A DNA stretch of 60,574 nt, taken from an uncultured Thomasclavelia sp. (GTDB taxonomy: Bacteria; Bacillota_I; Bacilli_A; Erysipelotrichales; Coprobacillaceae). The notes beneath the pieces are model-generated. The model made no database searches and was not told where the DNA came from. It worked only from the letters and a program-made list of their open reading frames with translations. Numbering within the stretch: the first letter of the stretch is position 1; every line of letters starts with the position of its first letter. Of the stretch, positions 8,263 through 40,842 are shown in pieces. The stretch lies in contig NZ_CALUXO010000044.1 of NCBI RefSeq assembly GCF_944324745.1, positions 1 to 60,574 of the forward strand, written 5' to 3'. The position numbers were made by a program, and so were the translations under genes.

Positions 8263-10831
<2,569 letters not shown>

Positions 10832-25831: not shown

Positions 25832-26068
25832 CTCGTCCTATATAAGGACGAGCATTACCCGTGTTACCACCTTAATTCGCTATTATCTTACAATAATAAC
25901 CTCATCGAGTACCATCATACTCTAGCGCAATAACGGGCGCCCCCGTTATAGACTAAATATCGCCTATAAGACTCCAAGACCATCTTCATTTACCCTCATA
26001 CATCCTTTTCCACCACCCAAGGACTCTCTATCGTAATCTTGTAAACTACTCTTCTTTTCACTGTCGTT
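25832..26068 (-). promoter_or_regulatory. T-box leader (methionine) controlling metNIQ
   Basis: The conserved T-box core AAGGTGGTAACACGGG (complement of about 25857-25873) is followed by the terminator CTCGTCC-loop-GGACGAG (25832-25852) and a T-run. Stem I elements are present: an AGTAG-type segment, AGAGAG, a GGTGG terminal region and the CTTGGAGTC closing strand. The triplet just before it is ATG at 25981-25983, the expected specifier for methionine. In the bulge, TGGT can pair with the ACCA end of tRNA-Met, whose discriminator is A in both Met tRNAs here. Uncharged tRNA-Met would thus turn on the importer. Confidence 0.9.
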
Positions 26069-26074
26069 GGGGTT

Positions 26075-30443: not shown

Positions 30444-31082
30444 TTAATACTGTCCCCTAGTATGAAATTCTTTTTTATTTCCATTAATTTTATGACGCTC
30501 TTTTAATTTATTTTCAATATCAGATAAACTAATACCTTGATTATTCATTAAAACAAAGACATGATAAAATAAGTCGCTGATTTCCCCAATTAGCTCTTGT
30601 TTATCATCATTTTTAGCAGCAATGATCGTTTCACTAGCTTCTTCACCAACTTTTTTACAGATCTTATCAACTCCTTGATCTAATAGATAATTTGTATAAG
30701 ATTTTTCAATTGGATGAACTTTTCGATCAGCTATCAATTTTTCTAAGCTATAAAAAATATTAGTATTATCATAAGGCATTACTTCATTGAAAAAACATGA
30801 ATATGCCCCCGTATGACAGGCAGCCCCAATTTGTTCAACAAGAATTAATAAAGTGTCATAATCACAGTCAAGATACATTCCTTTGATATTTTGGTAATGA
30901 CCTGATGTTTCTCCTTTATGCCATAACTGTTTTCGAGACCGAGAATAGAAACAAGTTTGTTTTGTTTCTAACATTTTTTGATAAGACTCTTCATTAACAT
31001 ATGCCAGCATCAAAACCTGATTAGTTTGATAATCTTGAACAATTGCTGGAATTAATTCCATTTTTTTAAAATCTGGTTGCAT
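30444..31082 (-). CDS. hisI: Bifunctional phosphoribosyl-AMP cyclohydrolase / phosphoribosyl-ATP pyrophosphatase
   Basis: A 212-residue HisIE fusion. HisI domain (about 1-115): [20 protein letters not shown] (about 43-62), the zinc ligands in LDCDYDTLL, and [12 protein letters not shown] (about 92-103). HisE domain (about 120-212): [20 protein letters not shown] then [13 protein letters not shown], the MazG-like metal site. It carries out steps 2 and 3 of histidine biosynthesis. It is last in the operon; its start overlaps the hisF stop by one base. Confidence 0.96.
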
Positions 31083-31846
31083 TACATTGCCCTCCTTACA
31101 TTAATTCCCTGTTTTCTTAATTCATTTCTAACATCTTCTACTGTTGCTTCACCAAAATGAAATAATGAAGCGACCAAAGCCGCATCACAATTGGTTTGTT
31201 TAAAAACATCGACAATATCTTGAATACTGCCACAGCCCCCACTGGCAATTACTGGAATATCGACGACATCACAAACAGCATTGATCATATCGATATCATA
31301 ACCGGCTTTAGTTCCATCAGCATCCATCGAAGTTAATAAAATTTCTCCGGCTCCTAATTGTCGGCATTTTTTTACCCATTCAATTAGATCAATCCCAGTA
31401 TTTTCACGGCCTCCTTTAACATAGACATCATAACCGCCATCAGCTCTCTTTTTTGCATCGATGGCCACCACGACACATTGCACTCCAAATTCATCGGCAG
31501 CTTCTTTAATCAAAGATGGATTAGCAATAGCCGCGGAATTAATCGAAACTTTATCAGCGCCACAAGCTAGAATCGTTCTAAAATCATCTAAAGTTCGAAT
31601 CCCACCACCGACAGCTAATGGAATTGATAATTCTTTGGCACCACGTTCGATTAAATCTTTAATAATATCTCTTTCTTCATAACTGGCAGTAATATCCAAA
31701 AATACTACTTCATCGGCACATTGTTGATCATAGCGTTTAGCTAATTCAATCGGATCTCCAACATCTTTTAACCCAACAAAGTTTATTCCCTTAACAACTT
31801 TACCATTTTTAATATCCAAACATGGAATTATCCGTTTTGTAAGCAT
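31082..31846 (-). CDS. hisF: Imidazole glycerol phosphate synthase, cyclase subunit
   Basis: A 254-residue TIM barrel. The N-terminus is [20 protein letters not shown] (residues 5-24) with the catalytic Asp11; the second catalytic Asp is in [16 protein letters not shown] (about 126-141). Phosphate-binding motifs are [12 protein letters not shown] and VIASGGCGS. It pairs with HisH to make imidazole glycerol phosphate and AICAR. It overlaps hisA by 19 bp. Confidence 0.97.
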
Positions 31847-32553
31847 GAAATGACCTCCTTTAAATCAACCTTACCTTCATAGTAAGCTTTCCCGACAATA
31901 CAAGCATAATAATTTTTATTAGCTGCATCGATGATATTCTGTTGATTTTTGATGCCCCCAGAAACTACAAAATTGATTTTAGAAGTTTGCGCTATTTTTT
32001 CATACATTTCAAAATTAGGGCCTTGTAAAGTGCCATCTTTACTAATATCAGTCGCCACTATATATTTAATACCTAGATCCTCTAAATATTTAATAAATTC
32101 CAAATAAGGAACATTACTGGTTTCCAGCCAGCCTGATGTCGAAACAAAACCATCTTTGACATCGACTCCAACAACTATTTTTTCAGGACCATATTTATTT
32201 AACGCTGCTTTTAAAAATTCTGGATCATTAATTGCTGCAGTTCCTAAAATAACTCGATCAATTTTAACTTCATCTAAATATAAAGAAACTGTCGCCATTG
32301 TTCGAATACCGCCACCAAGTTCAATTTGCATCTTAGTATTTTCTTTGATCTTTTTTATCGTCTCTAAATTAACACATTTACCATCTTTCGCCCCATCTAA
32401 ATCAACTACATGTAATAACTTAGCTCCCATTGATTCAAATTGTTTTGCTAATAGCTCGGGCTGTTGACTATATACTGTTTTTTGCTGATAGTCACCTTTA
32501 TACAATCGAACTGCTTGACCATCTTTTAAATCGATTGCTGGAATAACTAACAT
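31828..32553 (-). CDS. hisA: ProFAR isomerase
   Basis: A 241-residue TIM barrel homologous to HisF. It isomerises the aminoaldose ProFAR to the ketose PRFAR. Catalytic Asp is in [20 protein letters not shown] (residues 3-22), the second Asp in [15 protein letters not shown] (about 165-179); phosphate loops are [12 protein letters not shown] and [10 protein letters not shown]. Its start overlaps hisH by 7 bp. Confidence 0.97.
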
Positions 32554-33155
32554 TTGATCATCTCCTTAAAAGCTAATAATATTTGTTGTCCCACGGCCCC
32601 ACTTTTTTCAGGGTGGAACTGACAGCCAATCACGTTATCCTTAGCCGCAATAGCCGTAATGTTGGCTTTACCATAGTCAGTATAAGCAATCAGCTGTTTA
32701 TCAGGACATTTGGCCATATATGAATGAACAAAATAAACATCATCATTTTCATGAATATTTTTTAAAATTGGATGGTCGTGGTTGAAATGCAACTGATTCC
32801 AGCCCATATGGGGCACTTTTTCGTCAATATCCATGAACACAACTTCACCATCTAAAAAACCTAATCCAGCAGTTTCTTGAACTTCATAACCTTTTTGAAA
32901 TAAAATCTGCATTCCTAAACAAATACCTAAAATTGGGACTCCAGCTTCTTTTCTTGCAGTTAAAATGCCAATTAAATCATATTTTTTTAAATTATTCATC
33001 GCTACTGGAAAAGCTCCAACCCCTGGTAAAACAATCGCATCAGCCTGTTTAATAATTTCATGATCACGAGATACGATTGCCTCTAGTCCAATTCGTTTTA
33101 ACGCTGAAGTAACACTGCTTAAATTTCCGATATTATAATCAATGATTACTACCAT
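32547..33155 (-). CDS. hisH: Imidazole glycerol phosphate synthase, glutamine amidotransferase subunit
   Basis: A 202-residue class I amidotransferase. It has VIIDYNIGNLSSVTSALKRI at the start, nucleophile Cys in PILGICLGMQILF (about 75-87), and the His/Glu of the triad in IGCQFHPEKSG (about 175-185). It supplies ammonia to HisF. It lies 12 bp after hisB. Confidence 0.97.
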   Translation of the reverse strand: MVVIIDYNIGNLSSVTSALKRIGLEAIVSRDHEIIKQADAIVLPGVGAFPVAMNNLKKYDLIGILTARKEAGVPILGICLGMQILFQKGYEVQETAGLGFLDGEVVFMDIDEKVPHMGWNQLHFNHDHPILKNIHENDDVYFVHSYMAKCPDKQLIAYTDYGKANITAIAAKDNVIGCQFHPEKSGAVGQQILLAFKEMIKC

Positions 33156-33167
33156 TTAAATTCCTCC

Positions 33168-33755
33168 TTATAATACTCCTTTTGAAGAAACAATTTTATC
33201 AGGATTAGTTTCATCAATACTTACGGCCTCTTTTAAAGCTCGTCCTAGACTTTTAAAAATGGCCTCAACAATATGATGATTATTTAAACCATAATGTTGA
33301 TTTATATGTAATGTCATCATGGAATTAAAAGCAAAAGCTCTAAAAAATTCAACTGCCATTTCAGTTTCAAACGTCCCGATTCGTTCGCAGGTTAAATTAA
33401 CATTAAAAACTAGATAAGGACGATTAGACAAGTCTAAATTTGTAGAAACTAAAGTTTCATCCATCGGAATAGTAAAAGCCCCGTAACGTTTTATTCCTTT
33501 TTTATCACCTAAAGCTTCTTTTAAACAAGTACCTAAAACGATTCCTAAATCTTCAATTGTATGATGAGTATCAACATTTAAATCACCTTGACATTTTACT
33601 ACTAAATCAAAATTACTATGAAAAGCTAATAGCGTTAACATGTGATCTAAAAAACCAATCCCAGTATCAATTTCACTTTGACCATTTCCATCAAGATTTA
33701 GATCCACTAAAATCTTAGTTTCTAAAGTAGATCGTTCAATATGACTAGTTCTCAT
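33168..33755 (-). CDS. hisB: Imidazoleglycerol-phosphate dehydratase
   Basis: A 195-residue monofunctional dehydratase. The start at 33755 ([14 protein letters not shown]) is chosen because AGGAGG lies just upstream; longer in-frame starts reach into hisD. Metal-binding motifs are GIGFLDHMLTLLAFHS (about 37-52), DTHHTIEDLGIVLG (about 65-78), and NNHHIVEAIFKSLGRALKEA (about 163-182). The lack of a phosphatase half means that histidinol phosphatase must be a separate protein; the PHP gene at 3586 fits. It overlaps hisD by 11 bp. Confidence 0.97.
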   Translation of the reverse strand: MRTSHIERSTLETKILVDLNLDGNGQSEIDTGIGFLDHMLTLLAFHSNFDLVVKCQGDLNVDTHHTIEDLGIVLGTCLKEALGDKKGIKRYGAFTIPMDETLVSTNLDLSNRPYLVFNVNLTCERIGTFETEMAVEFFRAFAFNSMMTLHINQHYGLNNHHIVEAIFKSLGRALKEAVSIDETNPDKIVSSKGVL

Positions 33756-35055
33756 CTCCATCCTCCTCAAAGCGCACAGCAATCGAATTGGCATGTCCAT
33801 CTAATCCTTCACTTTTAGCAAAAGTCATGACATCATCCTTAAATTCAGCCAAAATATTTTTAGGATAATAACTATAAGATGAGTACTTAACAAAATCATA
33901 AACTCCTAAAGATGAATAAAACTTCGCCGTTCCTCCAGTTGGTAAAACATGGTTAGTTCCACTCATATAATCACCTAATGGTTCTGGTGAATATTCACCT
34001 AAAAAGATTGATCCGGCATTTTTGATTTTTGGAAGATAATTAATTGGATTATCAACTAATACTTCTAAATGCTCAGGTGCCAAGTAGTTAGAAACTTCAA
34101 AAGCCTGATCTAGATTATCAACAATAATCGCCCCACCATAATTAGTTAAAGAACTTTCAATAATTTCTTTTCGAGATAAATATCCCATTTGTCTAACTAA
34201 TTCTTTATTAACTTCTTCAACTAATTCTTGGCTGGTAGTTACCAACATCGCACTAGCTAATTTATCATGTTCAGCCTGAGAAATTAAATCAGCTGCAATA
34301 TATTTACTGTTAGCTTTTTTATCTGCAATAATTAAAACTTCACTTGGTCCCGCTACCATATCAATATCCACTAAACCATAACTAAACTTTTTAGCTGTGG
34401 CTACATAAATATTACCTGGTCCAACAATTTTATCTGCTTTTTTTATTGTTTTAGTACCATGGGCCATCACTGCTACCCCTTGAGCTCCACCAAACTTATA
34501 GATGGTATCAACACCGCTAATTTTAGCCGCAGCTATAATAACCGGATTAACTTTTCCATCGGCTTTTACTGGTGTAATAATTACTAAATCTTTAACACCA
34601 GCTAATTTTGCAGGAACGGCATTCATTAATACCGTTGAAGGATAGCTGGCAGTCCCACCAGGAACATAAAGAGCAACTCTTTCAATTGGACGAACCATCT
34701 GCCCCATAATAACCCCATTATCTTTAAATAACGACCATGATTTATCAATTTGATTTTTATGAAACTCGATGATTTGGTCTTTAGTTCGCTGTAAGATCCG
34801 TAAATAATCAGCATCTACTTCTTGTAAAGCTGCTTCTTTTTCAGCTTCACTAACGATTAAGTCACTTTCATCATTTATTTGATAACCATCAAATTTTAAA
34901 CAATATTCAAATAAAGCTTCATTACCGCGACTATTAATATCCTCAATGATTTTTAATACTGCTTCATTAACTTCTTTACTGACACTTTCCTTACGGTTAT
35001 CTAATTTAGCGGCAACATTTTCTAAATTACCCTTATAATCAATTATTTTTAACAT
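33745..35055 (-). CDS. hisD: Histidinol dehydrogenase
   Basis: A 436-residue enzyme that oxidises L-histidinol twice to L-histidine with NAD and a zinc ion. Visible motifs: [19 protein letters not shown] (about 124-142), [20 protein letters not shown] (about 207-226), the zinc/catalytic region [17 protein letters not shown] (about 252-268), [11 protein letters not shown] (about 325-335) and [11 protein letters not shown] (about 365-375). Length and order are those of a complete enzyme. It overlaps hisG by 7 bp. Confidence 0.97.
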
Positions 35056-35684
35056 TCTTTCTCCTCCGTAACTGCTTCTAATTTATTAATCAAATCAATT
35101 ATTTCATCTTTTTTAAACTTAAAGCTTACTTTATTAGCAATTAATCTAGTTGAAACATCACTAACTTTTTCAATTACTTCCAGACCATTAGCCCTTAAAG
35201 TTGATCCCGTTTCTACAATATCAACAATAGCATCACTAATTCCAACGATCGGACCTAATTCAACTGATCCCTCTAACTTAATAATTTCAACATCTTCTTG
35301 TTTACTTTCAAAATAACTTTTAGCAACCTTTGGATACTTGCTGGCAATTCTTTTACGACGAACAAACTTTTTATTTCGATATTCAGGATATGCGGCAACC
35401 GCAAAATAACACTTACCTATATTTAAATCTAATAATTCATAATAATCCTCAAAATCACTATCATCTAATGTATCTTTACCCACAAAACCAATATCAACGA
35501 TTCCATGTTCCAAAAACGTAACTACATCATTAGCTTTTCCGAAAATCATCTGAATCCCATCTTTAGTAGTAATCAATAATTCCCGGTCTTTATTAAAAAT
35601 TGGTTCCATGTCAAATCCAGCCTGATGGAGTAATTTACATACTTGTTTTTCTATTCGACCTTTAGTAATGGCAATTTTAATCAT
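35049..35684 (-). CDS. hisG: ATP phosphoribosyltransferase, short form
   Basis: A 211-residue short-form HisG, which needs HisZ for activity and feedback control. It has [20 protein letters not shown] (residues 4-23), [20 protein letters not shown] (about 53-72), and the PRPP-binding [20 protein letters not shown] (about 145-164). It lacks the C-terminal regulatory domain of long HisG. It catalyses the first committed step of the pathway. It overlaps hisZ by 8 bp. Confidence 0.97.
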
Positions 35685-36654
35685 TATTCTCGTCCTCCTT
35701 ATCTAATGCTTTTAAAATATGATTCATGTGATAACAAAAACCAATAGCACTGACATTTTTATTAAAACGAGGTAATAAATCATCATAGCGTCCTCCAGAA
35801 ATAATTGGCTGCGCGCTAGTATCACAATAACCTTTGATCATTAATCCCGTATAATATTTCATACTTGGCACCATGCCTAAATCAAAAATAATTTTATCTT
35901 TACTATCTAGGGTGTTATAGACTTCTTTTAAATTTTGCATTGCTTCAATTAAAATTGGATCACTGATATTTTCAATAGCCTCATTTAATAACCTTATATC
36001 ACCAAAAGCAACTGGAAGTTTTAATAATAGACTATTTAAACTATCACTAAAATTATTTTGAGCAACAAATCTTTTCATACCACTAATATTACGATATTTT
36101 AATATTTCCGTTAATTCTTCAGCTTTATCCTTTACCAGATAACAAATTCGGTTAAAAAACTGAGCTGAACCTATTTCAATTAAAATATTTTTTAATCCTA
36201 AATGTGGTAATGACTCTTGAATCATCATTAAACATTCCTGATCACCAGCTAAACCTGGTTTGTTGATCAATTCGACCCCACCTTGGAAAAACTCGCTGGA
36301 ACGACCTTTATGCATGATTTCCTTACGATAGACTTTACCAAAATAACAATAACGAGCTTCTTCATTATCGAAATTATTCGTCGAATAAAATCGCGCTAAT
36401 GGAATCGTAAAATCGCATCGCATAGCAACATTTTTTCCTTCATGATTAATGTATTGAAACATTTTTTCTTGATCAAAGCCACAATCAAGCTGCGTATATA
36501 AATCTACGTATTCAAACGATGGCATCAACACTTCCTGATAATTATTTTTTGAAAAAATGGTTCTCAAACTATTTTCAATTTCTCTTAACTTGGCGACATT
36601 TGTAATAATCGCATCGATACTTTCTTCAGGTATCAGATACTTAAATTTCTCCAT
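35677..36654 (-). CDS. hisZ: ATP phosphoribosyltransferase regulatory subunit
   Basis: A 325-residue HisRS-like paralogue without a tRNA-binding domain. Start 36654 is chosen for the GGGGG site upstream; a longer frame begins inside the attenuator. Class II synthetase-like motifs are present: [20 protein letters not shown] (motif 1 region), [14 protein letters not shown] (motif 2) and [15 protein letters not shown] (motif 3 region). It is the first structural gene of the operon, immediately after the leader terminator. Confidence 0.95.
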
Positions 36655-36673
36655 TTTAGTTCCCCCTTTAGTT

Positions 36674-36760
36674 ATAAAAAAACGAGTCATTTACTAATGA
36701 CTCGTCTTACTTCAAATTGTCATTAGATACACCCAATTAATATAAATACTAACACAAAAT
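36674..36760 (-). promoter_or_regulatory. his operon attenuator: terminator and competing hairpins
   Basis: The terminator is ACGAGTCATT (36682-36691) paired with AATGACTCGT (36696-36705), followed on the minus strand by seven Ts. Upstream, CTAATGAC can pair perfectly with GTCATTAG inside the terminator arm (antiterminator). A further segment GATACAACCCA can pair with TGGGTGTATC, and GGGTTTTATCA can pair with TGATACAACCC next to the leader peptide. This is the classical four-segment arrangement of amino-acid-operon attenuators: stalling at His codons would favour read-through. Confidence 0.88.
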
Positions 36761-36786
36761 GGGTTGTATCATTTGATGATAAAACC

Positions 36787-36837
36787 CTAGGCTATCCAAT
36801 GATGGTGATGTAATTGTTTCATATTTAAACTTGTCAT
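36787..36837 (-). CDS. hisL: his operon leader peptide (four consecutive His codons)
   Basis: ATG at 36837, with AGAGGTGAT upstream, opens a 16-codon frame MTSLNMKQLHHHHWIA ending in TAG at 36787. Four successive CAT/CAC codons precede the segment that pairs as the pause hairpin. Ribosome stalling here when His-tRNA is short would control the terminator at 36674-36705. It is too short for ordinary gene finding. Confidence 0.9.
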   Translation of the reverse strand: MTSLNMKQLHHHHWIA

Positions 36838-37090
36838 AACTATCACCTCTTAATGTATACAATATATCATAGATAAGTTAAAATTAAAAGAAAAAATGAT
36901 AATATTTTCTTATTTAATTTTATTATCTAGTTATCTGTAACATGGGTTATTGCAATAATAATCGATAAATACGGTGGTTTTTAATTTATGTTAATAATTT
37001 TTTATATTTATAATATGTTTTTCTTAAAAGATTTATTTATTATCAAATTAAGAGTATTATATTGAATATAAATAAAGGAGGACAATTTAA

Positions 37091-39826: not shown

Positions 39827-39902
<76 letters not shown>

Positions 39903-39905
39903 ATA

Positions 39906-39982
39906 TGGCGGTCTGGACGGGACTCGAACCCGCGACCTCCGCCGTGACAGGGCGGCATTCTAACCAACTGAACTACCAGACC
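39906..39982 (-). tRNA. tRNA-Asp (GTC)
   Basis: A 77-nt cloverleaf with CCA and discriminator G. The acceptor GGTCTGG pairs with CCAGACC. The anticodon arm is CCGCC-CTGTCAC-GGCGG, anticodon GTC. Confidence 0.96.
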
Positions 39983-39986
39983 TTTT

Positions 39987-40063
<77 letters not shown>

Positions 40064-40081
40064 ATATTCTTTTTTAATAAA

Positions 40082-40174
40082 TGGCGAGGGATGAGGGATT
40101 CGAACCCCCGCGGGACGTTAATCCCCTGTCGGTTTTCAAGACCGATCCCTTCAGCCGGACTTGGGTAATCCCTC
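40082..40174 (-). tRNA. tRNA-Ser (TGA)
   Basis: A 93-nt class II tRNA with a long variable arm and CCA. The acceptor GAGGGAT pairs with ATCCCTC; the discriminator is G. The anticodon arm is TCGGT-CTTGAAA-ACCGA, anticodon TGA. Confidence 0.94.
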
Positions 40175-40184
40175 GCATTATTTT

Positions 40185-40261
40185 TGGTGGACCCTGTTGG
40201 ACTCGAACCAACGACCGATCGGTTATGAGCCGATAGCTCTAACCAGCTGAGCTAAGGGTCC
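40185..40261 (-). tRNA. tRNA-Ile2 (CAT anticodon, lysidine type)
   Basis: A 77-nt cloverleaf with CCA. The anticodon loop is CTCATAA on an ATCGG/CCGAT stem, with acceptor GGACCCT and discriminator A. Acceptor and loop resemble Firmicute tRNA-Ile2, whose C34 is changed to lysidine by TilS to read ATA. The neighbouring CAT tRNA with loop TTCATAC fits elongator Met, which supports this split. Assignment to Met cannot be fully excluded. Confidence 0.72.
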
Positions 40262-40295
40262 TTGTTCTTTCTTTATTAGGGTTCCTCTATTTAAT

Positions 40296-40372
40296 TGGTA
40301 GCGGGGAAGGGATTCGAACCCCCGACCCACCGGGTATGAACCGATTGCTCTAGCCAACTGAGCTACCCCGCC
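40296..40372 (-). tRNA. Elongator tRNA-Met (CAT)
   Basis: A 77-nt cloverleaf with CCA. The acceptor GGCGGGG faces CCCCGCT with a G1-U72 pair; the discriminator is A. The anticodon loop TTCATAC is typical of elongator Met in Firmicutes. Confidence 0.85.
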
Positions 40373-40411
40373 GTAATCAACTACAGCAACGCTATAATTA
40401 TTTCTTTTTAT

Positions 40412-40487
40412 TGGTGGAGCCTAGCGGGATCGAACCGCTGACCCCCTGCGTGCAAAGCAGGTGCTCTCCCAGCTGAGCTAAGGCCCC
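40412..40487 (-). tRNA. tRNA-Ala (TGC)
   Basis: A 76-nt cloverleaf with CCA. The anticodon arm is CCTGC-TTTGCAC-GCAGG, anticodon TGC. The acceptor GGGGCCT pairs with AGGCTCC; the G3-U70 identity pair of alanine tRNAs is present. Confidence 0.95.
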
Positions 40488-40495
40488 TTTTTAAA

Positions 40496-40572
40496 TGGTC
40501 GGGAAGACAGGATTTGAACCTGCGACCCCCTGGTCCCAAACCAGGTGCACTACCAAGCTGTGCTACTTCCCG
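40496..40572 (-). tRNA. tRNA-Pro (TGG)
   Basis: A 77-nt cloverleaf with CCA. The acceptor CGGGAAG pairs with CTTCCCG. The anticodon arm is CCTGG-TTTGGGA-CCAGG, anticodon TGG. Confidence 0.95.
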
Positions 40573-40576
40573 AAAA

Positions 40577-40653
40577 TGGCGCGCTAGGCAGGAATCGAAC
40601 CCACAACCTCTTGATCCGTAGTCAAGCACTCTATCCAGTTGAGCTACTAGCGC
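40577..40653 (-). tRNA. tRNA-Arg (ACG)
   Basis: A 77-nt cloverleaf with CCA and discriminator G. The acceptor GCGCTAG pairs with CTAGCGC. The anticodon arm is CTTGA-CTACGGA-TCAAG, anticodon ACG (A34 expected to become inosine). Confidence 0.95.
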
Positions 40654-40668
40654 AATTTAATTTTTAAA

Positions 40669-40758
40669 TGGTGCCCAGGGCCGGAATCGAACCGGCACGG
40701 ATTTTAAAGGTCCGCAGGATTTTAAGTCCTGTGCGTCTACCAGTTTCGCCACCTGGGC
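40669..40758 (-). tRNA. tRNA-Leu (TAA)
   Basis: A 90-nt class II tRNA with CCA. The acceptor GCCCAGG pairs with CCTGGGC. The anticodon arm is CAGGA-CTTAAAA-TCCTG, anticodon TAA. A long variable arm follows. Confidence 0.95.
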
Positions 40759-40767
40759 AACATTCCT

Positions 40768-40842
40768 TGGAGGTTCCAACCGGACTCGAACCGATGATAA
40801 CAGAGTTGCAGTCTGTTGCCTTACCAACTTGGCCATGGAACC
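40768..40842 (-). tRNA. tRNA-Cys (GCA)
   Basis: A 75-nt cloverleaf with CCA and the U discriminator typical of Cys. The acceptor GGTTCCA pairs with TGGAACC. The anticodon arm is ACAGA-CTGCAAC-TCTGT, anticodon GCA. It is the first gene of the cluster. Confidence 0.95.

What the first reader, a model, noticed from the sequence alone, without database searches (positions are those of the whole stretch)
36674..36837. Histidine operon leader with His4 peptide and transcription attenuator
A 16-codon leader peptide with four consecutive His codons, its own ribosome binding site, a pause hairpin, an antiterminator and an intrinsic terminator precede hisZ. This ribosome-stalling type of control is the textbook enterobacterial mechanism but is uncommon in Firmicutes, where T-boxes usually control amino-acid operons; the same window uses a T-box for methionine. 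Mixed strategies in one genome are notable.
Basis: partly seen in the sequence, partly recalled or inferred. Interest (0 to 1): 0.75.

Follow-up and report, generated by a model that had tools for sequence, protein, structure and literature searches.

The report
Histidine operon ribosome-stalling leader switch
In front of a gut bacterium's histidine-making genes lies a tiny gene with four histidine codons in a row and an RNA switch that probably turns the genes on when histidine runs short; this type was already reported for related bacteria, but the comparison here shows how its parts most likely interlock.

Summary
The finding is real. On the minus strand a 16-codon ORF (36837-36787, MTSLNMKQLHHHHWIA) with its own SD precedes a terminator (36705-36676) and hisZGDBHAF-IE. 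It is the only SD-preceded short ORF in the window with three or more His in a row. The RNA folds far better than shuffles (z -5.1). The same leader, one per genome, lies before hisZ in 39 of 43 genomes of the family (Coprobacillaceae; the window's genus is Thomasclavelia). Three of the other four have no detectable hisZ and the fourth has it cut at a contig end. It was not found in 273 other genomes of the order.

D:E, B:C and 0:CD keep complementarity through sequence change. A ribosome stalled on the His codons covers 0 and frees D for D:E.

This is ribosome-mediated attenuation. Ashniev et al. 2022 (PMC9413887) already reported His attenuators in six Erysipelotrichales species, so this is a new member of a known kind. 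Function is inferred; nothing was assayed.

The parts
36861..36871 (-). candidate extended -10 promoter element (TATGATATATT); transcription start would lie about 36855
   Evidence: inference from sequence; similar TATGATATATTG in same-genus leaders; not picked up by the consensus scan
36844..36849 (-). Shine-Dalgarno GAGGTG of the leader peptide
   Evidence: sequence; GAGGTG or GAGGT precedes most leader ORFs in relatives
36787..36837 (-). leader peptide ORF MTSLNMKQLHHHHWIA*, 16 codons
   Evidence: homologous leader ORF in 38 further genomes
36799..36810 (-). four consecutive His codons CAT CAC CAT CAT (control codons)
   Evidence: three to five His conserved in 38 of 39 leaders, sometimes interrupted by one Arg
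36788..36803 (-). segment 0 (last His codons, Trp, Ile, Ala and start of stop): pairs with C/D, anti-antiterminator; core UCAUUGGAUA 36802-36793
   Evidence: MFE; duplex and permutation tests; covariation
36778..36787 (-). segment A, 5' arm of the A:B hairpin
   Evidence: 98.9 percent of cells paired in 21 leaders
36761..36770 (-). segment B, 3' arm of A:B; alternatively pairs with C
36755..36760 (-). conserved unpaired ATTTTG just after A:B, candidate NusG-type pause motif
   Evidence: TTT nearly invariant in 39 leaders; pause role is inference from PMC12288461 geometry and from the NusG residues
36726..36734 (-). segment C, pairs with B or (3' part) with 0
36719..36726 (-). segment D, pairs with E (antiterminator) or with 0
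   Evidence: 97.6 percent of cells paired D:E
36694..36701 (-). segment E, shared by antiterminator and terminator
36676..36705 (-). intrinsic terminator: 10-bp stem ACGAGTCATT/AATGACTCGT, AGTA loop, T7 tract
36661..36669 (-). Shine-Dalgarno region of hisZ (AAAGGGGGA), outside the terminator
   Evidence: sequence
35677..36654 (-). hisZ, first gene of the regulated operon
   Evidence: TIGR00443 E 6e-68, below its curated cut-off; synteny with hisG
30444..35684 (-). hisG, hisD, hisB, hisH, hisA, hisF, hisIE downstream in the same operon
   Evidence: NCBIfam matches, overlapping or near-abutting ORFs

Best explanation
A ribosome-mediated transcription attenuator of the hisZGDBHAF-IE operon. When charged His-tRNA is plentiful, the ribosome finishes the 16-residue peptide and leaves. 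Segment 0 (last His codons to stop) then pairs with C/D around the A:B hairpin, D cannot pair with E, the E:F terminator forms and transcription stops before hisZ. When charged His-tRNA is scarce, the ribosome stalls on the His codons and covers 0. B:C and D:E can then form and E is held away from F, so RNA polymerase reads through. Without any translation the default is termination. A:B plus the T-rich stretch after it may pause polymerase so that the ribosome can catch up. Shown here: the elements, their conservation and the complementarity. Inferred: the order of events, ribosome stalling, pausing and the response to histidine.
For: Leader with His run and terminator directly upstream of hisZ in 39 of 43 family genomes, one per genome; three of the four misses match the query only at HisRS level and one has hisZ at a contig end; hisZ start recognised behind 38 of 39. 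D:E 97.6 percent and A:B 98.9 percent of cells paired. The 0:CD helix shows changes on both sides at 4 of 10 pairs; for the whole terminating structure, which includes 0:CD, 0 of 500 column shuffles reach the observed score. Native duplexes 0:CD, B:C and D:E beat all 5000 partner permutations. Examples: 0:CD is AUCACAG/CUGUGAU in L106/L107 and UCGUG/CACGA in L037; D:E is CTAATAAC/GTTATTAG in L105; B:C is CAGTCC/GGACTG in L106. Ensemble folding of the window leader cut after E: P(D:E) 0.03 free against 0.73-0.76 with a ribosome on His codons 2-4, and P(D with 0) falls from 0.83 to 0.
Against: No expression data. The equilibrium switch is clear in the window leader but weak on average over 39 leaders (mean P(D:E) 0.41 free against 0.55-0.62 stalled on His1-4), and absent or reversed in some (L105, L106, L037, L027). 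0:CD is weak in L039 and L105. Single-leader codon-randomisation p values are mostly above 0.05. The permutation test does not correct for relatedness. A ribosome parked at the stop codon would also free D (P(D:E) 0.65), so termination needs prompt release.
Confidence: 0.88

Rival explanations
1. His-codon attenuator in which only the A:B/B:C and D:E/E:F stems matter; the 0:CD pairing is a by-product of constraint on the peptide (HHHHW) and on C/D.
For: C/D is already constrained by B and E. The Trp codon has no synonym, so its conservation cannot be split into peptide and RNA. 0:CD is weak in L039 and L105.
Against: Where the peptide after the His run differs (RHT, RT, RGSS, KK), the C/D strand or the register differs so that pairing persists. 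The codon after TGG starts with A in nearly all leaders that have the Trp, even when it codes Ile, Asn, Lys, Arg, Ser or Thr. Without 0:CD nothing obvious links ribosome position to D:E.
Confidence: 0.2
2. The peptide HHHHW is a nascent-chain arrest peptide that senses a ligand (free histidine or an antibiotic) rather than His-tRNA charging.
For: The HHHHW motif is common, and Firmicutes have ligand-sensing leader peptides such as tlrB (PMC6851288).
Against: Residues before and after the His run vary freely (HHHHRHT, HHHHHAMT, HRHHHRT, HHHHWKK); only the His codons stay. The gene controlled makes histidine.
Confidence: 0.03
3. A plain terminator read through at a constant rate, or a small protein gene with no regulatory role.
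For: No expression data exist here.
Against: Conserved mutually exclusive stems, a conserved His run and conserved position before hisZ in 39 genomes.
Confidence: 0.03
4. A T-box or another Rfam class of histidine leader.
For: Two hisZ operons in another family of the order (L042, L043) carry a T-box-like leader (GGTGGAACCACG element) with CAC near the specifier position, read by eye.
Against: Rfam reports no T-box here although it finds 19 T-box matches in the genome. RF00514 His_leader has no match while it finds E. coli. Nothing in Rfam reaches its cut-off in this stretch.
Confidence: 0.01

Closest known systems
Erysipelotrichales his attenuators of Ashniev et al. 2022 (PMC9413887; Eggerthia, Erysipelatoclostridium, Catenibacterium, Coprobacillus, [Clostridium])
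   Same: Same order and overlapping genera, same operon, His-rich leader peptide followed by attenuator, antiterminator and terminator; very probably the same element.
   Different: Six species there, 39 genomes here. The main text does not describe the segments; their alignment (Additional file 6) could not be read here, so whether it shows 0:CD is unknown.
His leader peptide before hisZ and hisS* in bacilli (Naville and Gautheret 2010, PMC2965389)
   Same: His-codon leader ORF and terminator before hisZ in Firmicutes.
   Different: Other lineage; the sequences were not compared directly here. The covariance model found nothing outside the family in a sample of 392 phylum genomes.
E. coli/Salmonella his attenuator (Rfam RF00514 His_leader)
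   Same: His codons in a leader peptide, pause-type hairpin, antiterminator and terminator; same logic.
   Different: No covariance-model match; four His codons instead of seven (E. coli from memory); the A:B hairpin begins at the stop codon, and the strand covering the control codons pairs with C/D instead.
B. subtilis tlrB and vmlR leaders (PMC6851288, PMC9226507)
   Same: Firmicute leaders in which a stalled ribosome on a short ORF controls read-through, with NusG-dependent pausing giving the ribosome time.
   Different: They sense antibiotics, not an amino acid; pausing was shown there and is only proposed here.

Membership tests
Ribosome-mediated amino-acid attenuator | Short translatable leader ORF rich in codons of the amino acid made by the operon | tested here: met
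   hisZGDBHAF-IE downstream
Ribosome-mediated amino-acid attenuator | Intrinsic terminator between leader ORF and first gene | tested here: met
   sequence, E:F 97.3 percent of cells paired; note that the consensus scan did not list it
Ribosome-mediated amino-acid attenuator | Antiterminator mutually exclusive with the terminator and conserved | tested here: met
   D:E
Ribosome-mediated amino-acid attenuator | Ribosome position decides which structure forms | tested here: inconclusive
   Ensemble folding agrees for the window leader, only weakly for the set of 39
Ribosome-mediated amino-acid attenuator | Read-through rises on starvation for the amino acid | not testable with these tools
   needs reporter assay
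Ashniev 2022 Erysipelotrichales his attenuator | His-codon leader before the his operon in the named genera, no T-box, no HisR | tested here: inconclusive
   Leader and lack of T-box met; HisR absence is their statement and was not searched; their alignment could not be read
Rfam RF00514 His_leader | Covariance-model match | tested here: not met
T-box (RF00230) | Covariance-model match with specifier and antiterminator bulge | tested here: not met
   one search finds only 25841-26070 in the window

The most novel reading that the evidence does not exclude
A variant layout of amino-acid attenuation: codons after and overlapping the His run act as an anti-antiterminator against C/D around a pause hairpin, with a NusG-type pause letting the ribosome catch up in a lineage where polymerase is thought to outrun ribosomes (Bacillota are classed as runaway in PMC13323073). 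It is conserved across one family, and a very divergent copy in another family of the class (L108) pairs its His codons themselves in the same way.
Probability: 0.35. Interest if true: 0.5.

Novelty: new member of a known kind. Interest (0 to 1): 0.35.

Why it matters
It makes it very likely that this whole family controls histidine synthesis by a translated leader while the same genome has many T-boxes, including one before its own hisS. It also gives an anatomical model with testable mutations. If the pause and release steps hold, it offers a natural test of how a stalled-ribosome switch works in Firmicutes, where transcription and translation are thought to be loosely coupled.

Tried and rejected
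Rfam at loose threshold in the leader: only chance-level matches. Consensus promoter and terminator scan: no useful hit. A model in which only A:B blocks the antiterminator was dropped because A:B lies after the stop codon and A:B formation alone leaves D free. The palindrome-like TTGTATACA before the leader was considered as an operator: it is shared by most leaders of the genus but is not at that place in most other genera, and occurs about as often as chance in the window. Codon randomisation has little power because few synonymous choices exist.

Full report
Observation. The minus strand carries a 16-codon ORF (MTSLNMKQLHHHHWIA, 36837-36787) with SD GAGGTG six bases upstream, four His codons in a row (36810-36799), a 10-bp terminator with seven T (36705-36676) and then hisZ at 36654. 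The operon reads hisZ, hisG, hisD, hisB, hisH, hisA, hisF, hisIE. HisZ scores below its curated cut-off (229 against 272 bits), so its name rests partly on synteny. Runs of four His codons are expected 0.08 times in a shuffled window; three occur, two of them at 2053 and 10462 on the + strand. Only this one lies in a short SD-preceded ORF. The folded leader is 5 s.d. below shuffles.

Who has it. The window's genome shares its genus with Thomasclavelia cocleata and T. saccharogumia (contig lengths and places coincide), family Coprobacillaceae. A covariance model from 21 leaders finds one copy in 39 of 43 genomes of the family. Of the four misses, three (G009, G016, G019) match the HisZ query only at the level of HisRS, and in the fourth (G008) hisZ starts at a contig end. 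It is absent from 273 other genomes of the order and, in samples drawn evenly from the class and the phylum, from every genome outside the family save one. Those large searches use strict filters and would miss distant relatives. Behind 38 of 39 leaders the start of hisZ was recognised automatically; L059 was not checked further.

The exception. G570 (another family of the class) scores 33.8 bits. Its locus L108 has MFTILISVHHHHSTT*, an A:B-like hairpin, a terminator, and behind it a gene resembling HisZ and then one resembling HisG (identified by eye, not by a family search). In its fold the His codons themselves pair with UGAUGAUG around the A:B-like hairpin. This is the same layout with other letters; common origin or convergence cannot be told.

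Alternative structures. Six segments plus one recur: 0 (last His codons to stop), A, B, C, D, E, F. Pairings A:B, B:C, D:E, E:F and 0:CD are found by eye and by folding. In 21 leaders A:B is paired in 98.9 percent of cells, E:F in 97.3, D:E in 97.6, B:C in 92.9 and 0:CD in 81.9. The terminating structure (0:CD with A:B and E:F) exceeds all 500 column shuffles; the antiterminating one does not (71 of 500 reach its covariation score), because C and D hardly vary. In 39 leaders, native partners bind better than permuted ones for 0:CD (-13.6 against -12.0 kcal/mol), B:C (-10.6 against -9.9) and D:E (-9.0 against -8.6), with 0 of 5000 permutations as good in each; A:B shows no such signal (394 of 5000) because it is nearly invariant. 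These tests do not correct for shared ancestry, so the independent cases matter most: L106/L107 (0:CD AUCACAG/CUGUGAU; B:C CAGUCC/GGACUG), L105 (D:E CUAAUAAC/GUUAUUAG), L037 (0:CD UCGUG/CACGA), and L030, L035, L027, L039 and L041 (B position 7 with a matching C base). L039 and L105 have only weak 0:CD.

Mechanism. Cut after E, the free window leader has D paired with 0 (0.83) and little D:E (0.03). With a ribosome over His codons 2-4, D:E is 0.73-0.76. Averaged over 39 leaders the shift is from 0.41 to 0.55-0.62, and some leaders do not switch, so equilibrium folding supports the model only in part. A ribosome at the stop codon would also free D (0.65 in the window leader), so termination needs release. 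The A:B hairpin is followed by a nearly invariant TTT (ATTTTG in most). B. subtilis NusG pauses need a hairpin 11-12 nt upstream of the RNA end and TTNTTT at -11 to -6 (PMC12288461). The match is partial (TTTTGT in the window). This genome's main NusG has RNTSGVTGF, that is the Asn-Thr pair which that paper gives as the pause-recognising residues (N81, T82) of B. subtilis NusG; the residue correspondence was made by eye, using the B. subtilis sequence from memory. Pausing is therefore possible, not shown.

Comparison. Ashniev et al. 2022 (PMC9413887) report His-peptide attenuators before his operons in six Erysipelotrichales species, in the B. cereus group and in Peptostreptococcaceae. Naville and Gautheret 2010 (PMC2965389) report them in bacilli. 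The element is therefore known in kind and almost surely the same one. It matches neither RF00514 nor any Rfam family. In two genomes of another family of the order the hisZ operon has a T-box-like leader instead (L042, L043; read by eye), in line with the 2022 paper; their HisZ proteins are only 27-29 percent identical, so a simple swap of regulator on one operon is not shown.

Mixed strategies. The genome has 19 T-box matches, 15 above the cut-off. One lies directly before hisS, which is followed by the start of aspS (gene names by eye); its specifier region reads GACAC, which holds both GAC (Asp) and CAC (His). So one genome may sense His-tRNA by T-box for the synthetase and by a translating ribosome for biosynthesis; which codon the T-box uses was not settled.

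Verdict. Confirmed observation, supported interpretation, known kind. The added value is the family-wide census and the 0:CD helix.

Noticed in passing
25841-26070 (-): T-box leader, 128 bits, AUG at the specifier position, consistent with methionine.
   Followed up: partly
L009 1501-1704 (-), G000:C54: T-box before hisS (aspS start follows) with overlapping specifier GACAC (GAC Asp or CAC His).
   Followed up: partly
L108 1170-1296 (-): Divergent His4 leader (MFTILISVHHHHSTT) before a hisZ-like gene in another family of the class; its His codons pair directly with a downstream UGAUGAUG.
   Followed up: partly
36854-36862 (-): Palindrome-like TTGTATACA between the candidate promoter and the leader SD, shared by most leaders of the genus but not at that place in most other genera.
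   Followed up: partly
39830-40842 (-): Cluster of 11 tRNA genes.
   Followed up: no
2053-2064 and 10462-10473 (+): Two more runs of four CAY triplets, not in SD-preceded short ORFs.
   Followed up: no
L110, L111, L112 (G000:C2, C91): Three further NusG-domain proteins besides the main NusG, two of them adjacent on C91.
   Followed up: no
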